Assembly: GCF_000155595.1 (NCBI RefSeq)
Contig: NZ_DS989907.1
Span: forward strand, 1-64,000
Origin: Synechococcus sp. PCC 7335
GTDB lineage: Bacteria; Cyanobacteriota; Cyanobacteriia; Phormidesmidales; Phormidesmidaceae
DNA: 64,000 nucleotides
Direction: 5' to 3'
The notes beneath the pieces were generated by a model. That model did not search any database. It saw only the letters and a list, made by a program, of their open reading frames with translations, and was not told where the DNA came from. Made by a program: the position numbers and the translations under genes. This document shows positions 21,635-45,752 of this stretch, piece by piece (within the stretch, counting starts at the first letter, position 1; each line of letters opens with the position of its first letter).

Positions 21635-22030
21635 TTGGTGAAGCCGAGCTATCACAAAGAATATAGGTCTGTTTATAAACTTACCGTGCATATTGTCTTT
21701 GTTTGCAAGTATCGACATCAACTGTTGAGTCATCAGCGACTAGGCGTCGTAGAACAATCTATTACCAGCACTTGTGCGAAGTGGGACTGTACGGTATTGG
21801 AGATGAACGGAGAGCTTGACCACCTGCATTTTGTGATTGACTACCCGCCTAAAACGGCGCTTAGCAAACTTATTGCTAACCTGAAAACTGTGTCTAGTCG
21901 GTTGTACAAGAAACAGTTCAACCATGACTATGCCCTTTGGTCGGGGTCTTACTTTGTGGCAACTTGCGGGGGCGCACCCCTTGAACAAATTAAGCACTAC
22001 GTCCAGAATCAAAATCGGCCTGAAGCCTAA
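21635..22030 (+). CDS. tnpA: IS200/IS605 Y1 transposase
   Basis: A 131-residue single-strand transposase. 'LDHLHFVIDYPP' near 61-72 holds the HUH metal site, and 'IKHYVQNQ' near 119-126 holds the catalytic tyrosine. Full length for the family. It recognises the subterminal hairpins and cuts and joins single strands. It could also mobilise the tnpA-less TnpB and IsrB elements in this window if their ends are close enough; that is inference. Confidence 0.93.
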   Translation: MVKPSYHKEYRSVYKLTVHIVFVCKYRHQLLSHQRLGVVEQSITSTCAKWDCTVLEMNGELDHLHFVIDYPPKTALSKLIANLKTVSSRLYKKQFNHDYALWSGSYFVATCGGAPLEQIKHYVQNQNRPEA

Positions 22031-35576: not shown

Positions 35577-38500
35577 TCATAGCCTATATAAGGCTAACAA
35601 ACTCCGGTAGATAGGTGGTGGTGAAGTAGTTTTCGGTGAGGGTGTATGGCTTATTTTGATCCTAGAACAGGCATCCATTTTGTTCACGTCACCCAGATTA
35701 GAAAGGTAATCATTATTCCAATAAGCGTGACGCCGCCTGATGGCTGAAAGCGCTTTAGAAACGGCGGTTTCGGTATCTCTATCTACCCATGCCAGCGCTT
35801 TCTTAATGATTTGATGCTTGGCTGCTGTGTTAACTGCAGTTCTAGTCTGCGCCCGAATAATTTTTAGCTCTGCTTGGAACTGCTGTAGGGGAGTAGGCTG
35901 TTTAGCCTTTAAGCTCTCCCGCCGCGCCAGCACATCGCCAATCACTTCTAGCCGATAAAGGTTAAGCCTTGCGCCACTACCTTCCCTGGTGTCTTTGATC
36001 GGCTTGTGCCCGACCAGCTCCAGGGCTTTGTTAAATAACGCCGCCGGGGCCATTTGATTGGAAAACTTAGCGCCCCGCGTCAGTCCGACTCGTTTGGTAT
36101 TTGCCGCAATTTGCTTTGCATGAGCGATCAAATAAAGTCCTGCGGCGATTACTTGCGGATGTTGGTTTGTCCACTGCACTAGCTCACCCTTAATTACCTT
36201 AGCCACACCTGGACAACGCGAAATGAGACTAACTAGCTCAATATCAGTGGCTGGTGCGGGAAGTTCTGGAAAATGCCAGAACTCTGTGCTATCTAGTTCT
36301 GGTCTCCCCGCTAGGAATTGGATTGCTTTCATTCGTTCTATTTGGTCAAAACAGGCTGGATCGTGAAGTGCGATATCTAGGAGCTGCGAGCGGACCACAG
36401 AGCGTATTCCTGGATTGCTGGCAGTTTTATCTGCGGCCCAGGCAGTAAAAAACTGGCTGTCCTGCTGTGAAAGAAACTGCTTGCCCAGTCGCTGCTCCAT
36501 GTGAAGCTTGGTCGCCCTTGCTGCTTGGAAAGGATTGTTGATCTCATCAATCACTGTTTCCGAAGCTCTAGTTTGAGTTTTTTTTAAAGTTCGTCCGCGC
36601 TGCTCAATCAGCCCAATCCTAATGTTATCGCTCAACACTTTTAGAGCGTCTAACTGCTTTTGTTGTTGTTGATCTGGCAAGGGTACTGGCGAAATGCGCC
36701 AGCCGTAGCACTGCCAATTTTCATGCAGTAACTTTCGCTTAAAAATGATCTCAAACGCTTTGAGTGCCAAAAAGTGCGGTAAGTTAGGTCGCATCGCTGT
36801 AAACTTTTCAGCCTCCCGCTGCATTGGCTTTAGCGCTTTCTCAGCGCCTAGTGCTTTAGCTAGCGCAGCCGCTGCACCCATCGGTGCCTTCGCTTCATTC
36901 GCTAGTTCATCTGCCCAATACTGCCAGCTCAGCGCATCAGGATAAGCTTCGAGCGTAGGGGCACCCCGTTGACTGAAATAGATGTGCCGCTCCTTGATCG
37001 CCCCATCGCGGCCAATGGCCGATCTGATTCGTTCCCCTCGCTGGCTGATGCTTTGGGCTCCTTCATGAGGTGTGGCATATTCAAATTGGATATCGAAATG
37101 CTGTCCTTCGATGCTCACACCGCTATTGATGACAGGAGTAAAGATAAACCAATCGGGCCTTTCTTCGCTTAGGAAAGTATCGGGATCGGACAAAAATTTC
37201 GAGCGCTGATTTTGCAAAGTGGCCGCGCCATCGATGGCTAGCCCAGTTTTATCTGGGAACTTAGCCCGCAAGACTCGATCAATAGCGCGGCCCTTCCCCC
37301 GACTGCCGGACGGAATAGCAACTCGTTGCCCACGCTCTAGTGCTTCAATGATTTTTTGTAGCCACTGGTAGTAGTTGCCATACTCAAAAATAGTCATCTC
37401 CGTAGCGGGTCTGCTGCGCCGCTGTAGATGCGTATCAGTTGGAGTAAAGCCGCCGATAGTTTGCGTGGCCGCAAGTGTCCAGCCGCTCATGGTAGCGGTG
37501 GCGATCGCTACTCGTGGTACCGAGGCAAGTAGCTGTCTGAATGCTGCTAAACTTTGTGGTCCCGCGTTGCCTAGTTCTGCCGACTCAATCCGATGTAGAA
37601 CTTCATTGGCTTCATCAATCTGGATCAAGTCAAAGCGCTGCCCTTTGAACTTGTAAGCTGATTCAGGGCAGCTGACCACAATCGCGGCACTGTAGTAGCT
37701 GGCATCTAAGTGAGTAGCCGCTATATCCCTGCCTGCTCGCTGATTGATGCGATGCTTGAATTCTTTCGCCAGTCCTCGTGTCGGTACGAAAATCAGCACC
37801 CGGCCACCGCTCTTAGCAACCTGTAACGCAGGCGGAATCAACGCCCGGTTAGATTTCCCTGTTCCCTGCGAGCAATCGTAAGCCACCAGCGACCGCCCGT
37901 CTGCTGGTGGCTGTATTTCTTCAGCGAAGCCGCTGATTAGCTCAGTATGAGTTTCATACTTGAGCAACTGCTTTAGTGATCGATAAAACTGCTCACGCGC
38001 TCGGTTTTTGTAGTCAGGGGCATCAGTATTGATATCTGCTTCGATACCGAGCAACTGAGCAATTCTGGCGTATGCATGGCGATCTCGTTCAACGCGCTGT
38101 TGTCGCTTCCACTCTGCTTGACTCTGTTGCCGCTTCGCTTCCTTTCTAGCGAAGCTTTCGCTAGAAAGCGGCGTCTTGGCAGTGAAAGCTGTCCAGGAGA
38201 TGAGCGCCGATTGCTCGAACTGTTCTGGGGTGATATCATCAACATCACCATCAGCTTTCGTGGTTTGGCCCCACCATCTGACTAAGAACTGGTAGCCTAA
38301 TCCCTCCACTATTTCAGCGAGGGCATTGTACTGACGCATCACTAGAGGGTTGCTGACTGCGCCGCCATCTGGGTTGAGCACCAGCATCTGAACGCCTAGC
38401 GCTTGGCACATCGCTTTTAGCTGCGCCGATGAACTAGCAAAGTTCCCACCTGCCGCACCGATAAATGCTTGACCCGTTCTTTCAGCCGCGATTATTGGCT

Positions 38501-39212
38501 TGAGGATACCTTCAGCAACATTGATAACTGTCCGATCACCATCAGCGAACGTCAGTGGTAGTTCACCATTTCGCAGGTTCGTTGGACGACCAGGAGTCGA
38601 GAGCCAAGGATAGCGAGGAACATCATCACTGCTCGTATCGCGGTTGCGAATCTGGAAGCCTAGAATACGCCCTTGAATATCTTTGGCGGGAACTAGATAG
38701 CCTGTATAGGGAGAGAGTAACTTAGTGCCATTCTCCCCTACCGCTGGGGTGTTCGGATGAACCGGGTTACGTAGGCGGTGCCAGGGCGTAATGCTTTTGA
38801 AAGCGGCGATTGTATTAGTAGAAAGTCCCCGGCGTTCTAAGTCGGCTCTATCCTCAGCATGTAACGACAGTTGAGTGAGAATCTGCCGATAGGCGATATT
38901 GCGCTCGTCAATGCTGAGCCCAGCTCGATAGTGTTCCTTAAGTGCATTCTCTTCAGCGGCTCGGCGGGCGCGACGCTCGGCAAGTTCCGCTTCACTAAGC
39001 TGAGTAGCGGTGATATCAGGCGTGAATGTGGCCCACTGCGAGCCCGCTTTGATGCATTTATAGCCAGCGATAACCTCAAACAGCTTTGCATCCCCATAGG
39101 TCATGCAAAGGACAAATTCCTGATCGCCGTCTGTTTTGGTGCTGCACTTGCCGCTGGTGTTATCACAGATCGGACAAGGATTATTCCGTTTGGTTGGCCG
39201 CAACTTTGTCAT
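35577..39212 (-). CDS. CyRepA1-family plasmid replication protein
   Basis: 1211 residues. N-terminal zinc motif 'CPICDNTSGKC', then a Toprim-like DUF3854 region (about 160-310; 'INVAEGILKPIIAAERTGQA', 'VLNPDGGAVSNP'). A superfamily 2 helicase-like ATPase follows: Walker A 'CSQGTGKSNRALIPP' near 450, 'LIQIDEANEVLHR' near 533, 'AIATATMSGWT', and 'QSISQRGERIR' near 727. This order (zinc, primase-like, helicase) is that of the large cyanobacterial plasmid initiators. It marks the replicon as plasmid-borne. A 43-residue leader overlaps its start codon by four bases. Confidence 0.85.
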   Translation of the reverse strand: MTKLRPTKRNNPCPICDNTSGKCSTKTDGDQEFVLCMTYGDAKLFEVIAGYKCIKAGSQWATFTPDITATQLSEAELAERRARRAAEENALKEHYRAGLSIDERNIAYRQILTQLSLHAEDRADLERRGLSTNTIAAFKSITPWHRLRNPVHPNTPAVGENGTKLLSPYTGYLVPAKDIQGRILGFQIRNRDTSSDDVPRYPWLSTPGRPTNLRNGELPLTFADGDRTVINVAEGILKPIIAAERTGQAFIGAAGGNFASSSAQLKAMCQALGVQMLVLNPDGGAVSNPLVMRQYNALAEIVEGLGYQFLVRWWGQTTKADGDVDDITPEQFEQSALISWTAFTAKTPLSSESFARKEAKRQQSQAEWKRQQRVERDRHAYARIAQLLGIEADINTDAPDYKNRAREQFYRSLKQLLKYETHTELISGFAEEIQPPADGRSLVAYDCSQGTGKSNRALIPPALQVAKSGGRVLIFVPTRGLAKEFKHRINQRAGRDIAATHLDASYYSAAIVVSCPESAYKFKGQRFDLIQIDEANEVLHRIESAELGNAGPQSLAAFRQLLASVPRVAIATATMSGWTLAATQTIGGFTPTDTHLQRRSRPATEMTIFEYGNYYQWLQKIIEALERGQRVAIPSGSRGKGRAIDRVLRAKFPDKTGLAIDGAATLQNQRSKFLSDPDTFLSEERPDWFIFTPVINSGVSIEGQHFDIQFEYATPHEGAQSISQRGERIRSAIGRDGAIKERHIYFSQRGAPTLEAYPDALSWQYWADELANEAKAPMGAAAALAKALGAEKALKPMQREAEKFTAMRPNLPHFLALKAFEIIFKRKLLHENWQCYGWRISPVPLPDQQQQKQLDALKVLSDNIRIGLIEQRGRTLKKTQTRASETVIDEINNPFQAARATKLHMEQRLGKQFLSQQDSQFFTAWAADKTASNPGIRSVVRSQLLDIALHDPACFDQIERMKAIQFLAGRPELDSTEFWHFPELPAPATDIELVSLISRCPGVAKVIKGELVQWTNQHPQVIAAGLYLIAHAKQIAANTKRVGLTRGAKFSNQMAPAALFNKALELVGHKPIKDTREGSGARLNLYRLEVIGDVLARRESLKAKQPTPLQQFQAELKIIRAQTRTAVNTAAKHQIIKKALAWVDRDTETAVSKALSAIRRRHAYWNNDYLSNLGDVNKMDACSRIKISHTPSPKTTSPPPIYRSLLALYRL

Positions 39213-39799: not shown

Positions 39800-40051
39800 T
39801 TATTCGCAGGGTAATGTTTTTGTTTTGGATGGAAAATCTGTGAGTGCATAGTCGTCGTTAGTAGCACAATGAGCTGGTAATGAGCGCCGGTAAAGAGATT
39901 GCACTCCCTCACTAAGCATCGAGATAGCCCTTTGATCATTAGCAGTTAAATGGTGAATGGGAAAGTGATCCCCTTCGTAGTGACGCACATGTAAAACATA
40001 GTGGCAGTTACTCCCTTCACTGGGAATTACTTGTTCAACTGTTCTTTGTGG
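39800..40051 (-). pseudogene. 3' part of a gene split by the IsrB element
   Basis: Reads RTVEQVIPSEGSNCHYVLHV, then 'RHYEGDHFPIHHLTANDQRA' and ends at 39800. It has no start. The missing 5' part lies at 41491-41647 beyond the IsrB element. Joining the two restores one frame (...CYQIPQRTVEQ...). Confidence 0.6.
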
Positions 40052-40131
40052 GATTCTCCCACCTAAACGAGGTGGGAGAAGGATAGCGGGGCGGCGATGA
40101 TGCGCCTAGCATCCCTAAGCCGCCCAATCTT

Positions 40132-41265
40132 CTACGCTACGCATAATCCGTTAGACCTCCTTAGTAACTTTGTTTTGCCAACTAAAAATTGCCCGATGCG
40201 CTTCCACTGCCAATCGTAGATAGAAACGACTTTATTGGGTTCGCTGTAGCCGCCGATATAGCCAGTTACAGCCGCTTTCCCTTTTGTAGATGAGACAAAA
40301 TCGCCAATCCTGAATAGCCAAGGTGTGACAGTACCGCCTTTGCGTTTGCGAACATCACCTTTGGCTGGAACCTCAAAATGGAGCTGACGACGATAAAACC
40401 CGTATTGCTTACCTCGCTTGACTGCGCCGAACCGAGTGATAATTTTGAAAACTGATGGCGTTATGCCAACGCTGCCGAAACAAGATTTACCATCTTCTTT
40501 GAACCGATGACATGACTTGAATTTGACAAAATAACTTGATGCTATAGCAACGCCGTCAACAGAATGAGTCTCAGGTTCCGCGTGGGATTTGTTTGTTTTA
40601 TCTTTCTCAAGTCCTAGAAATTTTCGGATTTGAGAAGTTCCGTTGCCGTCTTTCTGCCATCCTTTTATTTGGTAAACAGGCGCTAACTTACTCATTTGTT
40701 CGATAGCCCAGTCTTGACCGACTTGGACAGGACTAAAGTTGCACCCTTTTTTAGTTCTAGCTGCTACCCGCTCATAACCAATGGCAACAATCGGGAAGAG
40801 TTTCGATAGCTCAGTAATGACCCGTAACTCAAGTTGTCTAGCAGCTCTAATGCTAGGCGGAAGTTTATTACCGCGCCGATTGTCAAAGCGCTTTTGACGG
40901 TGCGACCGCTGAGCAAACGGAATAGAACGATCTATCCGTCGTCCTCTACGACCTCTACGCAACAATCGGCGCTGATCCATTCTGGCTCTAACACGATTAA
41001 ACGGTAGAACCAGATGGCCTCTAAACAGCGTATGTTTGCCCGACTGAACACCAACGCCTGAATATGATTTACCAGGATCTACACCCGCCACAATAGGCTG
41101 AGTAGCGTCACCTGATGGTTCTGCAACTAGCTTGATATACCACACACCTAGATCTGACCATTGACCTATCGCTTTACCGTCTCGCACCATTCGACGCGCA
41201 CGGCTCGCCTTGGTCGGCATTAATGGCTTGTCGTTATTATCGACTACAGGAACTCGACTGTTCAT
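40132..41265 (-). CDS. isrB: IsrB, HNH-less IscB relative
   Basis: 377 residues. The N-terminal PLMP domain ('VPVVDNNDKPLMPTKASRAR') is followed by RuvC-I 'AGVDPGKSYSGVGV' with Asp near 63, the Arg-rich bridge helix (RRLLRRGRRGRR), RuvC-II 'IVAIGYERV' with Glu near 162, and RuvC-III 'HSVDGVAIASS' near 236. No HNH domain (no CxxC plus DHxxP) lies between RuvC-II and III, which separates IsrB from IscB. IsrB proteins nick DNA under guidance of a long RNA made from sequence upstream of the gene. All key RuvC residues are present. Confidence 0.85.
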   Translation of the reverse strand: MNSRVPVVDNNDKPLMPTKASRARRMVRDGKAIGQWSDLGVWYIKLVAEPSGDATQPIVAGVDPGKSYSGVGVQSGKHTLFRGHLVLPFNRVRARMDQRRLLRRGRRGRRIDRSIPFAQRSHRQKRFDNRRGNKLPPSIRAARQLELRVITELSKLFPIVAIGYERVAARTKKGCNFSPVQVGQDWAIEQMSKLAPVYQIKGWQKDGNGTSQIRKFLGLEKDKTNKSHAEPETHSVDGVAIASSYFVKFKSCHRFKEDGKSCFGSVGITPSVFKIITRFGAVKRGKQYGFYRRQLHFEVPAKGDVRKRKGGTVTPWLFRIGDFVSSTKGKAAVTGYIGGYSEPNKVVSIYDWQWKRIGQFLVGKTKLLRRSNGLCVA

Positions 41266-41490
41266 TAGAGATAATCCAATAAATGTTTGTGAAACTTTCG
41301 TTTCGTCTCTTAACCCACTAATTACGGTGTTTCTAGGCGTTACTCTACTGTCTGAGATTCCAGACCCTACAGATAAACCAAACTAGAGAAGTGTTTGGTA
41401 GTGTTACCGTAATTAGCTCAGTGAGCTATTCGCAGTTACGGTCGGGTTATCTCCGACCACTCCCCCACCTCGTTACAGGTGGGGATCATT
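41266..41490 (-). ncRNA. Candidate IsrB omega-RNA
   Basis: IscB/IsrB guide RNAs come from the region just upstream of the gene, guide at the 5' end. This 225-bp non-coding stretch starts with the CCCCACCT/AGGTGGGG stem and contains further pairing segments (GACCGTAACTGCG, AATTACGGTAACAC, TCAGACAGTAG). The guide should be the DNA just outside, from about 41491 upward read on the reverse strand. Confidence 0.6.
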
Positions 41491-41647
41491 GAATCTGGTA
41501 ACAATCCTGAACGACGACAACAACATCTCCTGGTCTGGGTAACTTATTTACGGAACTGTGCCAGAGAAAATCTTCGAATAATATGCTCTCGAATCTACTC
41601 TTTGCATATACATACTCGCCCCATAGATAGACTTTAAAGCTCATCAT
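41491..41647 (-). pseudogene. 5' part of the gene split by the IsrB element
   Basis: ATG at 41647: 'MMSFKVYLWGEYVYAKSRFE', then SILFEDFLWHSSVNKLPRPG and DVVVVVQDCYQI, where the element begins. The protein was about 135 residues when intact. Family not recognised. Confidence 0.6.
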
Positions 41648-42110: not shown

Positions 42111-42790
42111 TTACCTCCCTAAATAGAATAGATACTGCTAACCATCGTTTACCAGTCTACACAAGAAACTAGTGTTGAAATAATAAAATAGATAGATCCA
42201 TGGTTTTCTATTTCTATGCAAAAGTCAATTGAAAAGATACTAATGGCTATATGAGTATATTTGCCACTGAGAATCCCTGACTAGCAGTGTAATCAGCAGC
42301 AAAACGGTTTGCAAGTATATCTTTTTTAATATTTTTTAATATACACCGGTCCTTTCTGTGCGTCAGGGACATCAAAAGCATATAGGTCTTTCGTATTCTA
42401 TGATAGAAAAAAGGAACTTATCTAGAAAGGAGATGTCTTGCTCAGAATCCACCCACATGAATTTAGTGATAAGAAGACATATGTTAATAAACTTAATATA
42501 GAAGCCTACGCGTAAGACACTTCCTAAATATATGACCCACATAGTCGATATCCTATTTAGGATATTTCCCTAAAAAAATAATTAGAAGTTCACATAGAAT
42601 GCACGGAGCAATTCTAAAAATTTGTTAGTTTATGTTTGAAAGGCTTGCTAAACGAAAAGATGTTAGCCTTGTCTATTCTTGTCCGTATATCTGTGAACAC
42701 TCAGTTTTGGAGATGATAGCTTCTGTAGATAGCTTGACTATATGTGTTAGAACCGCCAACTAAGTACGATTGATCTATAGGAGAGTGCTC
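42111..42790. other. 680-bp AT-rich gap before the STAND-kinase operon
   Basis: No gene. Contains a direct repeat TTTTTTAATAT twice near 42325-42345. Probably holds promoters for the divergent flanking genes. No known operator recognised. Confidence 0.4.
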
Positions 42791-44050
42791 GTGAATGTAA
42801 GCTTAGAGGAAGCCATACAATTTATTGAAGAGAAGCTACGTAGGCATAATTCTAGGCAATCTTTAACAAGAACTGAGAAAGTTGTACTGAAAGCGGCCTG
42901 GGACGGATTAACTTATGCAGCTGCTAGTGAACTTCCTGAGTGTGAGGCAGCATATAACACTTTGCAATCAAACGTTGGTCCTGCACTCTGGAATAAGCTG
43001 ACTCTGGTATTAGGTAAGCAAGTAAGAAAGAAATCTTTCAAGCGGTTAATTTCGCTTGAAATAAAGGCTATCAGAGCAAAGGAGATATCCCCCTCCCATG
43101 CCTTAGCTGAAGGAGAGTTTGTGCTTAAAGGAGCTTCTCTACCACCATTAGAGGGTTTTGTTGGTCGAGAAGCGGAAACAGATTCTTTACTAGCTTTGAT
43201 CCAAAAATACGCCTGTGTGTTCCTAGTTGGTCTAGAAGGTACTGGGAAAAAGTCTTTAGTTGCAAATATGCTAAGGAAGAAGCAAAACGAGTTACCGCTG
43301 CAAAGAGCTCTGTGGAAGCCTCTAAGCCATCGTCCTAGTCCCAAAGAGTTAGAAAGTGAGCTATCTACTTTAGTAGGAGGTAACGAGGACGTAGATCTTT
43401 TGTATAGGCTCTGTTCTACGCCATACATTATTGTTCTAGACTCTATTGATTCTTTGGCGATTGAAACAGACTGTCGCCCATCTTTAGATCCTGGACACGA
43501 GGCATTACTGCGTCGGATCTCCGAAGAATCACTCTCGAAGTTAATCGTGATTTCTACTCAGCCGACTGAGCTTAGCACTAATCTAGGTTTTGGTGGGCGA
43601 GCGATAGATTATAGGCTAGGTGGTCTGAGTTTTAGTGAGGCTCAAATTGTATTAGGTTCGCACTGGAACCAAGATAGTGCTCATGAAATCTGGAAGACTA
43701 CAGGTGGGCATCCGTTGATGTTGCGCGAGGCTGCGAAGTGGAGAGATTATGCGCCTGATATACAGTCGCAGTTGCAAAGGCTGACCGTACTAGCCAATCT
43801 ATTCGAGGATTTTTACGAAAAGATCTTTAAACGACTGAGACTCTCTTCATCAGATGTACACTTGTTAAAAGAAATATCGGCGTATAGTCAAGGTATTCCT
43901 TTTTCCTCTCTACTTAAGAAAGATCCGACTTCGATGTTGCCTATTGCTAATCTGATCATGATGGGATTAGTCCGTAAATCGTCGAACAAAAAAGGGGAAG
44001 ATGTCATTGAGACACCACCTTTACTGAGCCGTGCGCTAATGGGAGCATAA
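42791..44050 (+). CDS. STAND-type P-loop ATPase with vMAP-like N-terminal domain
   Basis: The GTG at 42791 is preferred: an AGGAG lies 8 bp upstream and the product begins MNVSLEEAIQFIEEKL. 419 residues. The N-terminal 90 residues ('LTRTEKVVLKAAWDGLTYAA' ... 'ALWNKLTLVLGKQVRKKSF') match the helical domain found in front of NB-ARC ATPases in cyanobacteria. Then 'GFVGREAETDSLLALI', Walker A 'GLEGTGKKSLVANML' and Walker B 'YIIVLDSID', and a winged-helix-like end. No sensor repeats follow. It is one base before a kinase gene, so the pair probably works together in signalling. Confidence 0.8.
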   Translation: MNVSLEEAIQFIEEKLRRHNSRQSLTRTEKVVLKAAWDGLTYAAASELPECEAAYNTLQSNVGPALWNKLTLVLGKQVRKKSFKRLISLEIKAIRAKEISPSHALAEGEFVLKGASLPPLEGFVGREAETDSLLALIQKYACVFLVGLEGTGKKSLVANMLRKKQNELPLQRALWKPLSHRPSPKELESELSTLVGGNEDVDLLYRLCSTPYIIVLDSIDSLAIETDCRPSLDPGHEALLRRISEESLSKLIVISTQPTELSTNLGFGGRAIDYRLGGLSFSEAQIVLGSHWNQDSAHEIWKTTGGHPLMLREAAKWRDYAPDIQSQLQRLTVLANLFEDFYEKIFKRLRLSSSDVHLLKEISAYSQGIPFSSLLKKDPTSMLPIANLIMMGLVRKSSNKKGEDVIETPPLLSRALMGA

Positions 44051-44051
44051 A

Positions 44052-45752
44052 GTGGCCCAATGCTTGAATACATATTGTTTGCATTGGCAAGATAATGATG
44101 CGATGTTTTGCGATCAGTGTGGATGTCCCTTTTATATCGATGAGCGCCTTGTTGCTACTCGGCTACTTAGTCAGAAAGGCTTATTCTCCACTGAGCGATC
44201 GCAAACGGCTGAAGCCTTCGACGTTGATACTCAGCAAACAGTAATTCTACGAGTTGTTGATTCTGAAGATCCTTTGTATGTAGACCCGTTGTTACATGCT
44301 GTTCGGGCATTGCAAAAAATCCACTCAGGCAAAAAAGTTCCTGGGATTATGCAATTAGTCGATGGAGACAGTTACTTTACTTATCCAATAAGACCCGATG
44401 AACCTGCTGCACATTTCATGGTGGCAAGGAAAGTCGAAGGAATTTCTCTAACTGAATGGATACAGAAGAATGGGGCTATCTCAGAGGAACTTGCGAAAAA
44501 TTGGTTAAAGCAACTGCTTAATGCGGTAGATGCTTTGCATCATGAGGGCTACTTGCATCGGGATATCAAACCTGACAACATTATAGTGACTGATGATCTT
44601 CAGTTAGTTTTAGTAGATTTTGATACTATTTTCTGTCTGTCAGATAGCTACTGGAAGACGCCTCGTATTGGTACAGGTGCTTATATGGCTCCTGAGCAGT
44701 CTAGCGGGAACCCATTACCTACCAGCGATCTCTACTCGATCGGTCGAACTATTATCGAAGCTCTGACTGGCAAATTTCCGCTTGAACTGGCTCGCTACCC
44801 AAATGAGTGTGTTGTCTGGGATAGAGAAGCTCCCAGGCTTTCAAAGCCATTCACTGAGCTAATCGATCGCCTAGCCAACAAGAATTTGTTATTTCGTCCT
44901 CCCGCTGCTAGCGTTGCGCTAACTTACCTATCTGAAGTTGAGGCTATCCCAGCACGGAAGCGATACTGGCGATGGCTAAGCGCACCTATCATGACAACCG
45001 CAGCTGCTATATTTGCTGTATCACTGACGATTGCTGCTGTCGGAAGCTTTGCTTTGTCTCAGCAAGTTCAGTCTGATAGTGAGCGATTAATAGCAGAGGG
45101 AAACCAGCTAATTCTTCAGGGTGATACCAGGGAGGGGCTACTGCTTCTAGAAGAGGCTGTGGAGCTAGCGCCAGATTCGGAGGAAGTTAGGGCAAAACTA
45201 GCGATCGCCTATGCTTTTATACGAGATTTTGAGTCAGCAATTGAGAACTATAAGATTGCCTTAGAAGTAGAGCCCAAAAATGCTCAATATCTGTATGAGA
45301 TTGCTAACGTTTACGAGGAAGTCAATCTACAGGAGTCTATTTTCTATTATATGGAAGCGGTAGAGAATAGCGAAGCAGATTCTTCAATTCAACTAGAAAG
45401 TCTGAACAACCTAGCTAGAGTCTATCTACTTACAGATCAGCTCCAAAAGGCTGAGGAAGTTCTTAGTAGGATCGATACGCATATAGAAGATCCAATTACA
45501 AGGATGACAGTCTTTAAGAATTTAGGTTGGCTCAACTATGAACGAGCCAACTATGACATTGCTATTGAGCAGTTAAATCAGGCGTTAGAGGCTGATGCGA
45601 CCTTTCCCGATCCTTACTGTCTCCTAGCTCTCATCCAGCAACATAGAGGAGAAGATAACTACAACGACCGTGCCACATGCGTTTTTTTAAACGCTCCTCC
45701 GAAGCCAGAGGTTACTGCTTGGCGAGAAGAATTGAATAGAGTTGCAGATTAG
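44052..45752 (+). CDS. Zinc-ribbon Ser/Thr kinase with membrane helix and TPRs
   Basis: 566 residues from GTG 44052 (GGAG about 7 bp upstream). Zinc ribbon CLNTYCLHW...CDQCG at 4-25. Kinase domain about 35-300: 'LHRDIKPDNIIV' near 170, 'LVDFDTIF' near 189 (DFD instead of DFG), 'GTGAYMAPEQ' near 207. No GxGxxG loop, and the usual VAIK lysine looks replaced (VILRVV). One membrane helix near 311-336, then four or five TPRs. The variant motifs make weak activity or a pseudokinase role possible. Confidence 0.85.
   Translation: MAQCLNTYCLHWQDNDAMFCDQCGCPFYIDERLVATRLLSQKGLFSTERSQTAEAFDVDTQQTVILRVVDSEDPLYVDPLLHAVRALQKIHSGKKVPGIMQLVDGDSYFTYPIRPDEPAAHFMVARKVEGISLTEWIQKNGAISEELAKNWLKQLLNAVDALHHEGYLHRDIKPDNIIVTDDLQLVLVDFDTIFCLSDSYWKTPRIGTGAYMAPEQSSGNPLPTSDLYSIGRTIIEALTGKFPLELARYPNECVVWDREAPRLSKPFTELIDRLANKNLLFRPPAASVALTYLSEVEAIPARKRYWRWLSAPIMTTAAAIFAVSLTIAAVGSFALSQQVQSDSERLIAEGNQLILQGDTREGLLLLEEAVELAPDSEEVRAKLAIAYAFIRDFESAIENYKIALEVEPKNAQYLYEIANVYEEVNLQESIFYYMEAVENSEADSSIQLESLNNLARVYLLTDQLQKAEEVLSRIDTHIEDPITRMTVFKNLGWLNYERANYDIAIEQLNQALEADATFPDPYCLLALIQQHRGEDNYNDRATCVFLNAPPKPEVTAWREELNRVAD

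What the first reader, a model, noticed from the sequence alone, without database searches (positions are those of the whole stretch)
39800..41647. IsrB element has split a host gene; empty target can be rebuilt
The two flanks of the IsrB element encode the two halves of one protein (MMSFKVYLWGEY...CYQI and PQRTVEQVIPSEG...). This gives the insertion site to within a base or two and the exact sequence the omega-RNA guide should match. Such an internal control for an HNH-less RNA-guided nuclease is rare in raw sequence.
Basis: partly seen in the sequence, partly recalled or inferred. Interest (0 to 1): 0.72.

Follow-up and report, generated by a model that had tools for sequence, protein, structure and literature searches.

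The report
IsrB transposon splitting a small ORF
A small RNA-guided mobile element (IsrB type) sits inside what looks like a 130-residue orphan reading frame on a probable cyanobacterial plasmid; comparing relatives fixes its ends to the base and so predicts its guide RNA and target, but no intact copy of the broken gene could be found.

Summary
The element is real: an intact, HNH-less IsrB (window 40132-41265, minus strand) with a covarying omega-RNA region in front and no transposase of its own. Aligning relatives fixes its ends at 40039-41493 (1455 bp). Four relatives' elements, treated by the same rule, align without a gap at the junction with eleven unoccupied alleles in congeners, so the empty-site reconstruction is sound: ...CGTTCAGGATTGTTACCAGA|TTGAACAAG..., with TTGA as target-adjacent motif, the motif measured for DtIsrB. 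The corrected joined ORF is 130 aa, in frame and free of stops. No homologue spanning the junction turned up in about 600 cyanobacterial genomes, a pattern scan of GTDB contigs, viral contigs or PLSDB plasmids, so the broken 'gene' is a likely but unproven orphan. New member of a known kind. More interesting in passing: sister elements with an ATGA motif often sit exactly on a host gene's start codon and carry a Shine-Dalgarno-like sequence just inside their right end (17 of 19, against 0 of 5 with TTGA).

The parts
40039..41493 (-). whole IsrB (ISC-type, IS200/IS605-like) element, 1455 bp, left end at 41493 (TTCAATGATCCCC...), right end at 40039 (...CACAAAGAACAG)
   Evidence: left-end alignment of 26 loci, right-end alignment, four relatives' elements with eleven empty alleles confirming the same boundary rule
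40132..41265 (-). isrB ORF, 377 aa; PLMP motif at residues 14-17; RuvC residues D63, E165, H234 and D237 by alignment to DtIsrB; no HNH domain
   Evidence: PF14239 E=3.7e-44; best solved-structure hit DtIsrB 8dmb E=6.8e-42, matching both the N-terminal part and the C-terminal domain; NCBIfam IscB model matched only over 3-162 of 314, below cut-off
41266..41493 (-). omega-RNA scaffold region upstream of isrB
   Evidence: consensus fold of 15 homologous regions: 33 of 39 predicted pairs have compensatory changes; DNA similarity to left ends of three G085 copies and one G193 locus starts at 41493-41495
41494..41513 (-). predicted 20-nt guide CGTTCAGGATTGTTACCAGA, i.e. the end of the left flank
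   Evidence: position relative to the left end and the 20-nt guide of DtIsrB (PMC9581776); transcription not tested
40035..40038 (-). TTGA target-adjacent motif at the right junction (start of the right flank)
   Evidence: right-end alignment; TTGA is the motif preferred by DtIsrB (PMC9581776)
41462..41484 (-). left-end subterminal hairpin (CCCCACCTGTAACGAGGTGGGG)
   Evidence: sequence; inverted repeat with the right end, 14 nt, 93%
40054..40080 (-). right-end subterminal hairpin (TTCTCCCACCT-loop-AGGTGGGAGAA)
   Evidence: sequence; same inverted repeat; conserved position in relatives
41494..41647 (-). 5' part of the interrupted ORF (51 codons plus one base)
   Evidence: ORF from ATG 41647; joined translation
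39800..40038 (-). 3' part of the interrupted ORF, ending in a stop codon at 39800
   Evidence: joined translation without internal stops, 130 aa

Best explanation
An IsrB element without its own transposase (1455 bp) inserted, probably by Y1-type single-strand transposition supplied in trans, in front of a TTGA motif inside a small plasmid ORF. It cut a 130-codon reading frame after the first base of codon 52 and neither duplicated nor lost host bases. The omega-RNA would start in the left flank, so its 20-nt guide (CGTTCAGGATTGTTACCAGA) records the insertion site. The occupied site lacks the target+TTGA arrangement, while an unoccupied copy of the plasmid has it, so the IsrB-omega-RNA complex would nick only empty copies, 8-11 nt before the motif as shown for DtIsrB, and so favour retention or copying of the element. 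Shown here: the ends, the motif, the intact protein and the covarying RNA region. Inferred: transcription of the guide, nicking, the trans-acting transposase, and that the joined ORF was a working gene.
For: IsrB identity: RRXRR PF14239, DtIsrB best hit over both parts with aligned catalytic residues. Ends: three near-identical G085 copies diverge exactly outside [T]TCAATGACCCC and after GGAGTTTTTG|ATGA. Rule proved on natural empty alleles: L046 (six congener alleles), L053 (L092, L099, L100), L052 (L069) and L039 (L110) align with no gap at the junction. Motif: TTGA, shared with the supported clade of nearest relatives L037/L038/L044 (0.999) and equal to DtIsrB's motif (PMC9581776). RNA: 33 of 39 pairs covary. 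Joined frame open over 130 codons. Gene-drive logic shown for TnpB on plasmids (PMC11870625).
Against: No homologue of the joined protein in 194 relatives, 386 phylum genomes, 65 genomes of the order, a GTDB contig pattern scan, viral contigs or PLSDB. Codon usage of the ORF is weak, and an open right half could be chance (1-11%). IsrB only nicks in vitro; an in vivo role in retention is not demonstrated in any source read here.
Confidence: 0.82

Rival explanations
1. The element is as described, but the two flanks are not halves of one gene: a short left ORF and a separate right ORF (or non-coding DNA) happen to be in frame across the junction.
For: No homologue spans the junction anywhere searched; weak codon usage; with exact ends fixed, an open right half in the needed frame is expected at 1-11% of sites, and about one in three if the right half is a gene of its own.
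Against: The other five frames of the joined sequence each carry at least five stops; the one open frame runs from an ATG to a stop over 130 codons across a junction that was fixed independently from relatives.
Confidence: 0.28
2. The insertion was followed by loss or rearrangement of host DNA next to the element, so the rebuilt empty site is not the original one.
For: A relative's element (L047) has flanks that congeners carry about 324 bp further apart, so joining flanks can mislead.
Against: Four relatives' sites with a contiguous congener match show no loss at the junction; the rebuilt site here has a proper TTGA motif and an open frame.
Confidence: 0.12
3. The element is a decayed, immobile remnant without RNA-guided activity.
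For: No transposase inside; single copy of this version in the genome.
Against: Open 377-aa frame with RuvC residues aligned, intact ends and motif, RNA fold kept; Y1 transposases elsewhere in the genome.
Confidence: 0.12

Closest known systems
DtIsrB of Desulfovirgula thermocuniculi (PDB 8DMB; PMC9581776)
   Same: PLMP, RuvC and C-terminal domain without HNH, omega-RNA directly upstream of the ORF, TTGA motif
   Different: only moderate protein similarity (phmmer E 6.8e-42); omega-RNA region here about 228 nt plus guide, against 284 nt including guide
Cyanobacterial IsrB orthologues CwIsrB and DsIsrB (PMC9581776)
   Same: cyanobacterial IsrB with NTG-type motif measured in vitro
   Different: not compared residue by residue here; the DsIsrB cleavage test used an ATGG motif
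IsrB elements L037, L038, L044 in other cyanobacterial genomes
   Same: same clade, TTGA motif, no Shine-Dalgarno-like sequence at the right end
   Different: 56-59% protein identity; other insertion sites; first base of the left end G instead of T
IscB / ISC elements
   Same: PLMP and RuvC parts, omega-RNA upstream, guide from the left flank
   Different: IscB carries an HNH domain; absent here

Membership tests
IsrB (OMEGA nickase) | RRXRR/PLMP N-terminus and split RuvC with catalytic residues | tested here: met
   PF14239 E=3.7e-44; D63, E165, H234, D237 aligned to DtIsrB
IsrB (OMEGA nickase) | no HNH domain | tested here: met
   no HNH match in Pfam; IscB model matched only in its first half; 69 residues between E165 and H234
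IsrB (OMEGA nickase) | structured omega-RNA directly upstream of the ORF | tested here: met
   33 of 39 consensus pairs with compensatory changes among 15 sequences; transcription not tested
IsrB (OMEGA nickase) | NTG(A) target-adjacent motif 3' of the target | tested here: met
   TTGA at the right junction, the motif of DtIsrB
IsrB (OMEGA nickase) | RNA-guided nicking of the non-target strand | not testable with these tools
   needs biochemistry
IS200/IS605-like (ISC) transposon | insertion without target-site duplication, subterminal hairpins at both ends | tested here: met
   empty alleles of four relatives show no duplication or loss; hairpins at 41462-41484 and 40054-40080. For this very site no empty allele was found
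IS200/IS605-like (ISC) transposon | Y1 transposase encoded in the element | tested here: not met
   none in 40039-41493; Y1 genes elsewhere in the genome, one at window 21668-22012; so at most a transposase-less relative that would need help in trans
insertion inside a conserved host gene | homologue continuous across the junction | tested here: not met
   no such homologue found

The most novel reading that the evidence does not exclude
Most cyanobacterial IsrB elements use an ATGA target-adjacent motif that coincides with host start codons, and carry at their right end a Shine-Dalgarno-like sequence at proper spacing, so that they replace the 5' leader of a host gene yet leave its coding sequence intact and translated; the TTGA clade, to which this window's element belongs, lacks this and breaks reading frames instead.
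Probability: 0.45. Interest if true: 0.55.

Novelty: new member of a known kind. Interest (0 to 1): 0.36.

Why it matters
The exact ends give a testable guide, target and motif for a cyanobacterial IsrB on a probable plasmid, where only empty plasmid copies would be nicked, the situation in which retention by RNA-guided nicking could be measured. The survey of relatives supplies natural occupied/empty allele pairs that fix IsrB element boundaries without experiments, and hints that many of these elements land on start codons without destroying the gene.

Tried and rejected
The apparent hit L019 (41 residues across the junction) overlaps a competing frame and matches no further; L068 is a stretch of an unrelated, longer ORF aligned through a WGEYVYAK match. 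L047 was first taken as a clean split gene, then rejected as a control because congeners have about 324 bp more between the flanks. Rfam has no matching family above threshold. A self-target search in the window found only the occupied site. The exact empty-site DNA is absent from viral contigs.

Full report
What was checked. The window (contig C4 of the assembly, a probable plasmid because of a partial, below-cut-off CyRepA1 match at 35577-39212) holds a 377-aa ORF at 40132-41265 on the minus strand. It matches RRXRR (PF14239), and its best solved-structure relative is the IsrB nickase of Desulfovirgula thermocuniculi over both the N-terminal RuvC part and the C-terminal domain. The catalytic D63, E165, H234 and D237 align, and no HNH domain is present.

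Element ends. Twenty-five loci (the window's own and 24 relatives) from 194 genomes were aligned. The left end begins with [T/G]TCA followed after 5-6 nt by the first hairpin; in the window this is 41493. The right end lies some 15-20 nt past the second hairpin and is followed by NTGA: ATGA in 19 loci and TTGA in five including this one; one copy, L033, has ATGC there. In the window that motif is TTGA at 40038-40035. Three near-identical copies in one genome (L046, L051, L053) are the same up to GGAGTTTTTG|ATGA and differ beyond.

Proof of the rule. For L046, L053, L052 and L039, the left flank ending just before [T/G]TCA was joined to the right flank starting with NTGA, and congeneric genomes were searched. 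Contiguous empty alleles came back: six for L046, three for L053 (one spanning the whole query), one for L052 and one for L039. In all of them the alignment has no gap at the junction; the L052 allele reads ATTA where the occupied one has ATGA. Hence there is no target-site duplication and no loss. L047 did not behave cleanly: its congeners have about 324 bp more between the flanks, which I read as an adjacent deletion after insertion (inference). The rule is therefore good but not infallible.

Application to the finding. The element spans 40039-41493 (1455 bp). The left flank ends ...GATTGTTACCAGA (41494) and the right flank starts TTGAACAAG (40038); a TT microhomology makes the left edge ambiguous by 2 nt without changing the product. 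The joined ORF is 130 aa (...QDCYQIEQVIPSEG...), in frame, without internal stops. Predicted guide: CGTTCAGGATTGTTACCAGA; predicted motif: TTGA, the preference measured for DtIsrB and used in the cleavage test of the Crocosphaera watsonii orthologue (PMC9581776). In a tree of the relatives the window's protein groups with three other TTGA elements (support 0.999), an independent agreement with the boundary.

Is it a gene? The full joined frame is open in 0.04% of shuffles, but the left ORF was picked for being open; the right half alone is open in the required frame in 1.1% of shuffles, and 11% of random positions in this gene-dense window are open that far. Codon usage lies between real genes and wrong frames. 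No homologue spans the junction in any collection, nor does any profile match. I put the split gene at about 0.7 and the element with its ends at above 0.9.

RNA. Fifteen left-end-to-ORF regions fold to a common structure in which 33 of 39 pairs have compensatory changes. This supports a conserved omega-RNA. Caveat: the alignment is by sequence, the rows are related, and several rows begin a few bases inside the element.

Mechanism. [quoted passage not shown] For TnpB, the guide recorded at the insertion site lets the nuclease attack element-free plasmids (PMC11870625). Here the occupied site has TTCA after the target in place of the TTGA motif (one search shows it as a one-mismatch hit), whereas an empty site would have TTGA. 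So only empty copies would be nicked. This is inferred, not shown.

In passing: start codons. Of 19 elements with an ATGA motif, 8 have an open frame of at least 100 codons starting at that ATG, against 14.6% of ATGA sites in the same loci (P = 0.003; not corrected for relatedness; the ORF lengths were read). Three of the four proven insertion sites are such starts, conserved in congeners, and on a Dolichospermum plasmid the annotated start of a helix-turn-helix regulator is exactly the motif. Seventeen of the 19 carry a Shine-Dalgarno-like tetramer within 16 nt before the ATG, against 0 of 5 TTGA elements and 1.9 expected from shuffles (related copies counted apart). The tetramer may instead be a transposase recognition sequence. 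I found no mention of this in the papers searched, which is a limited library.

Method note. A batch script that joined flanks of 22 relatives also joined one site that turned out to lie in a HicA-like toxin-antitoxin gene (L054). It was not pursued or used as evidence of a split gene, and is listed under referred steps.

Noticed in passing
L039, L041, L042, L045, L046, L048, L053, L055 and L134 (right ends): IsrB elements whose ATGA motif is the start codon of a long downstream ORF, most with GGAG/GAGG/AAGG/AGGA at proper spacing inside the element's right end; TTGA elements lack it.
   Followed up: partly
L047 and congeners: Insertion in a cyanobacterial gene where congeners have about 324 bp more between the flanks: probable adjacent deletion after insertion.
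   Followed up: partly
window 21668-22012 (+): Y1 transposase gene (PF01797, E=5e-34) about 18 kb from the IsrB element; a candidate helper in trans, with others on contigs C4 and C3.
   Followed up: no
contig C4 110736-111803, 131037-131993 and 121884-121994; contig C1 78856-79914 (L033-L036): Further IsrB relatives in the same genome at 51-57% identity, one truncated and one a fragment; L033 has ATGC where relatives have ATGA.
   Followed up: partly
window 35577-39212 (-): 1211-aa protein with a partial, below-cut-off match to the CyRepA1 plasmid replication family and a DEAD-box helicase match.
   Followed up: no
window 44052-45752 (+): 566-aa ORF that reads like a serine/threonine protein kinase with a zinc-ribbon start and TPR-like repeats, next to a 426-aa ATPase-like ORF at 42770-44050 (by eye only).
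   Followed up: no
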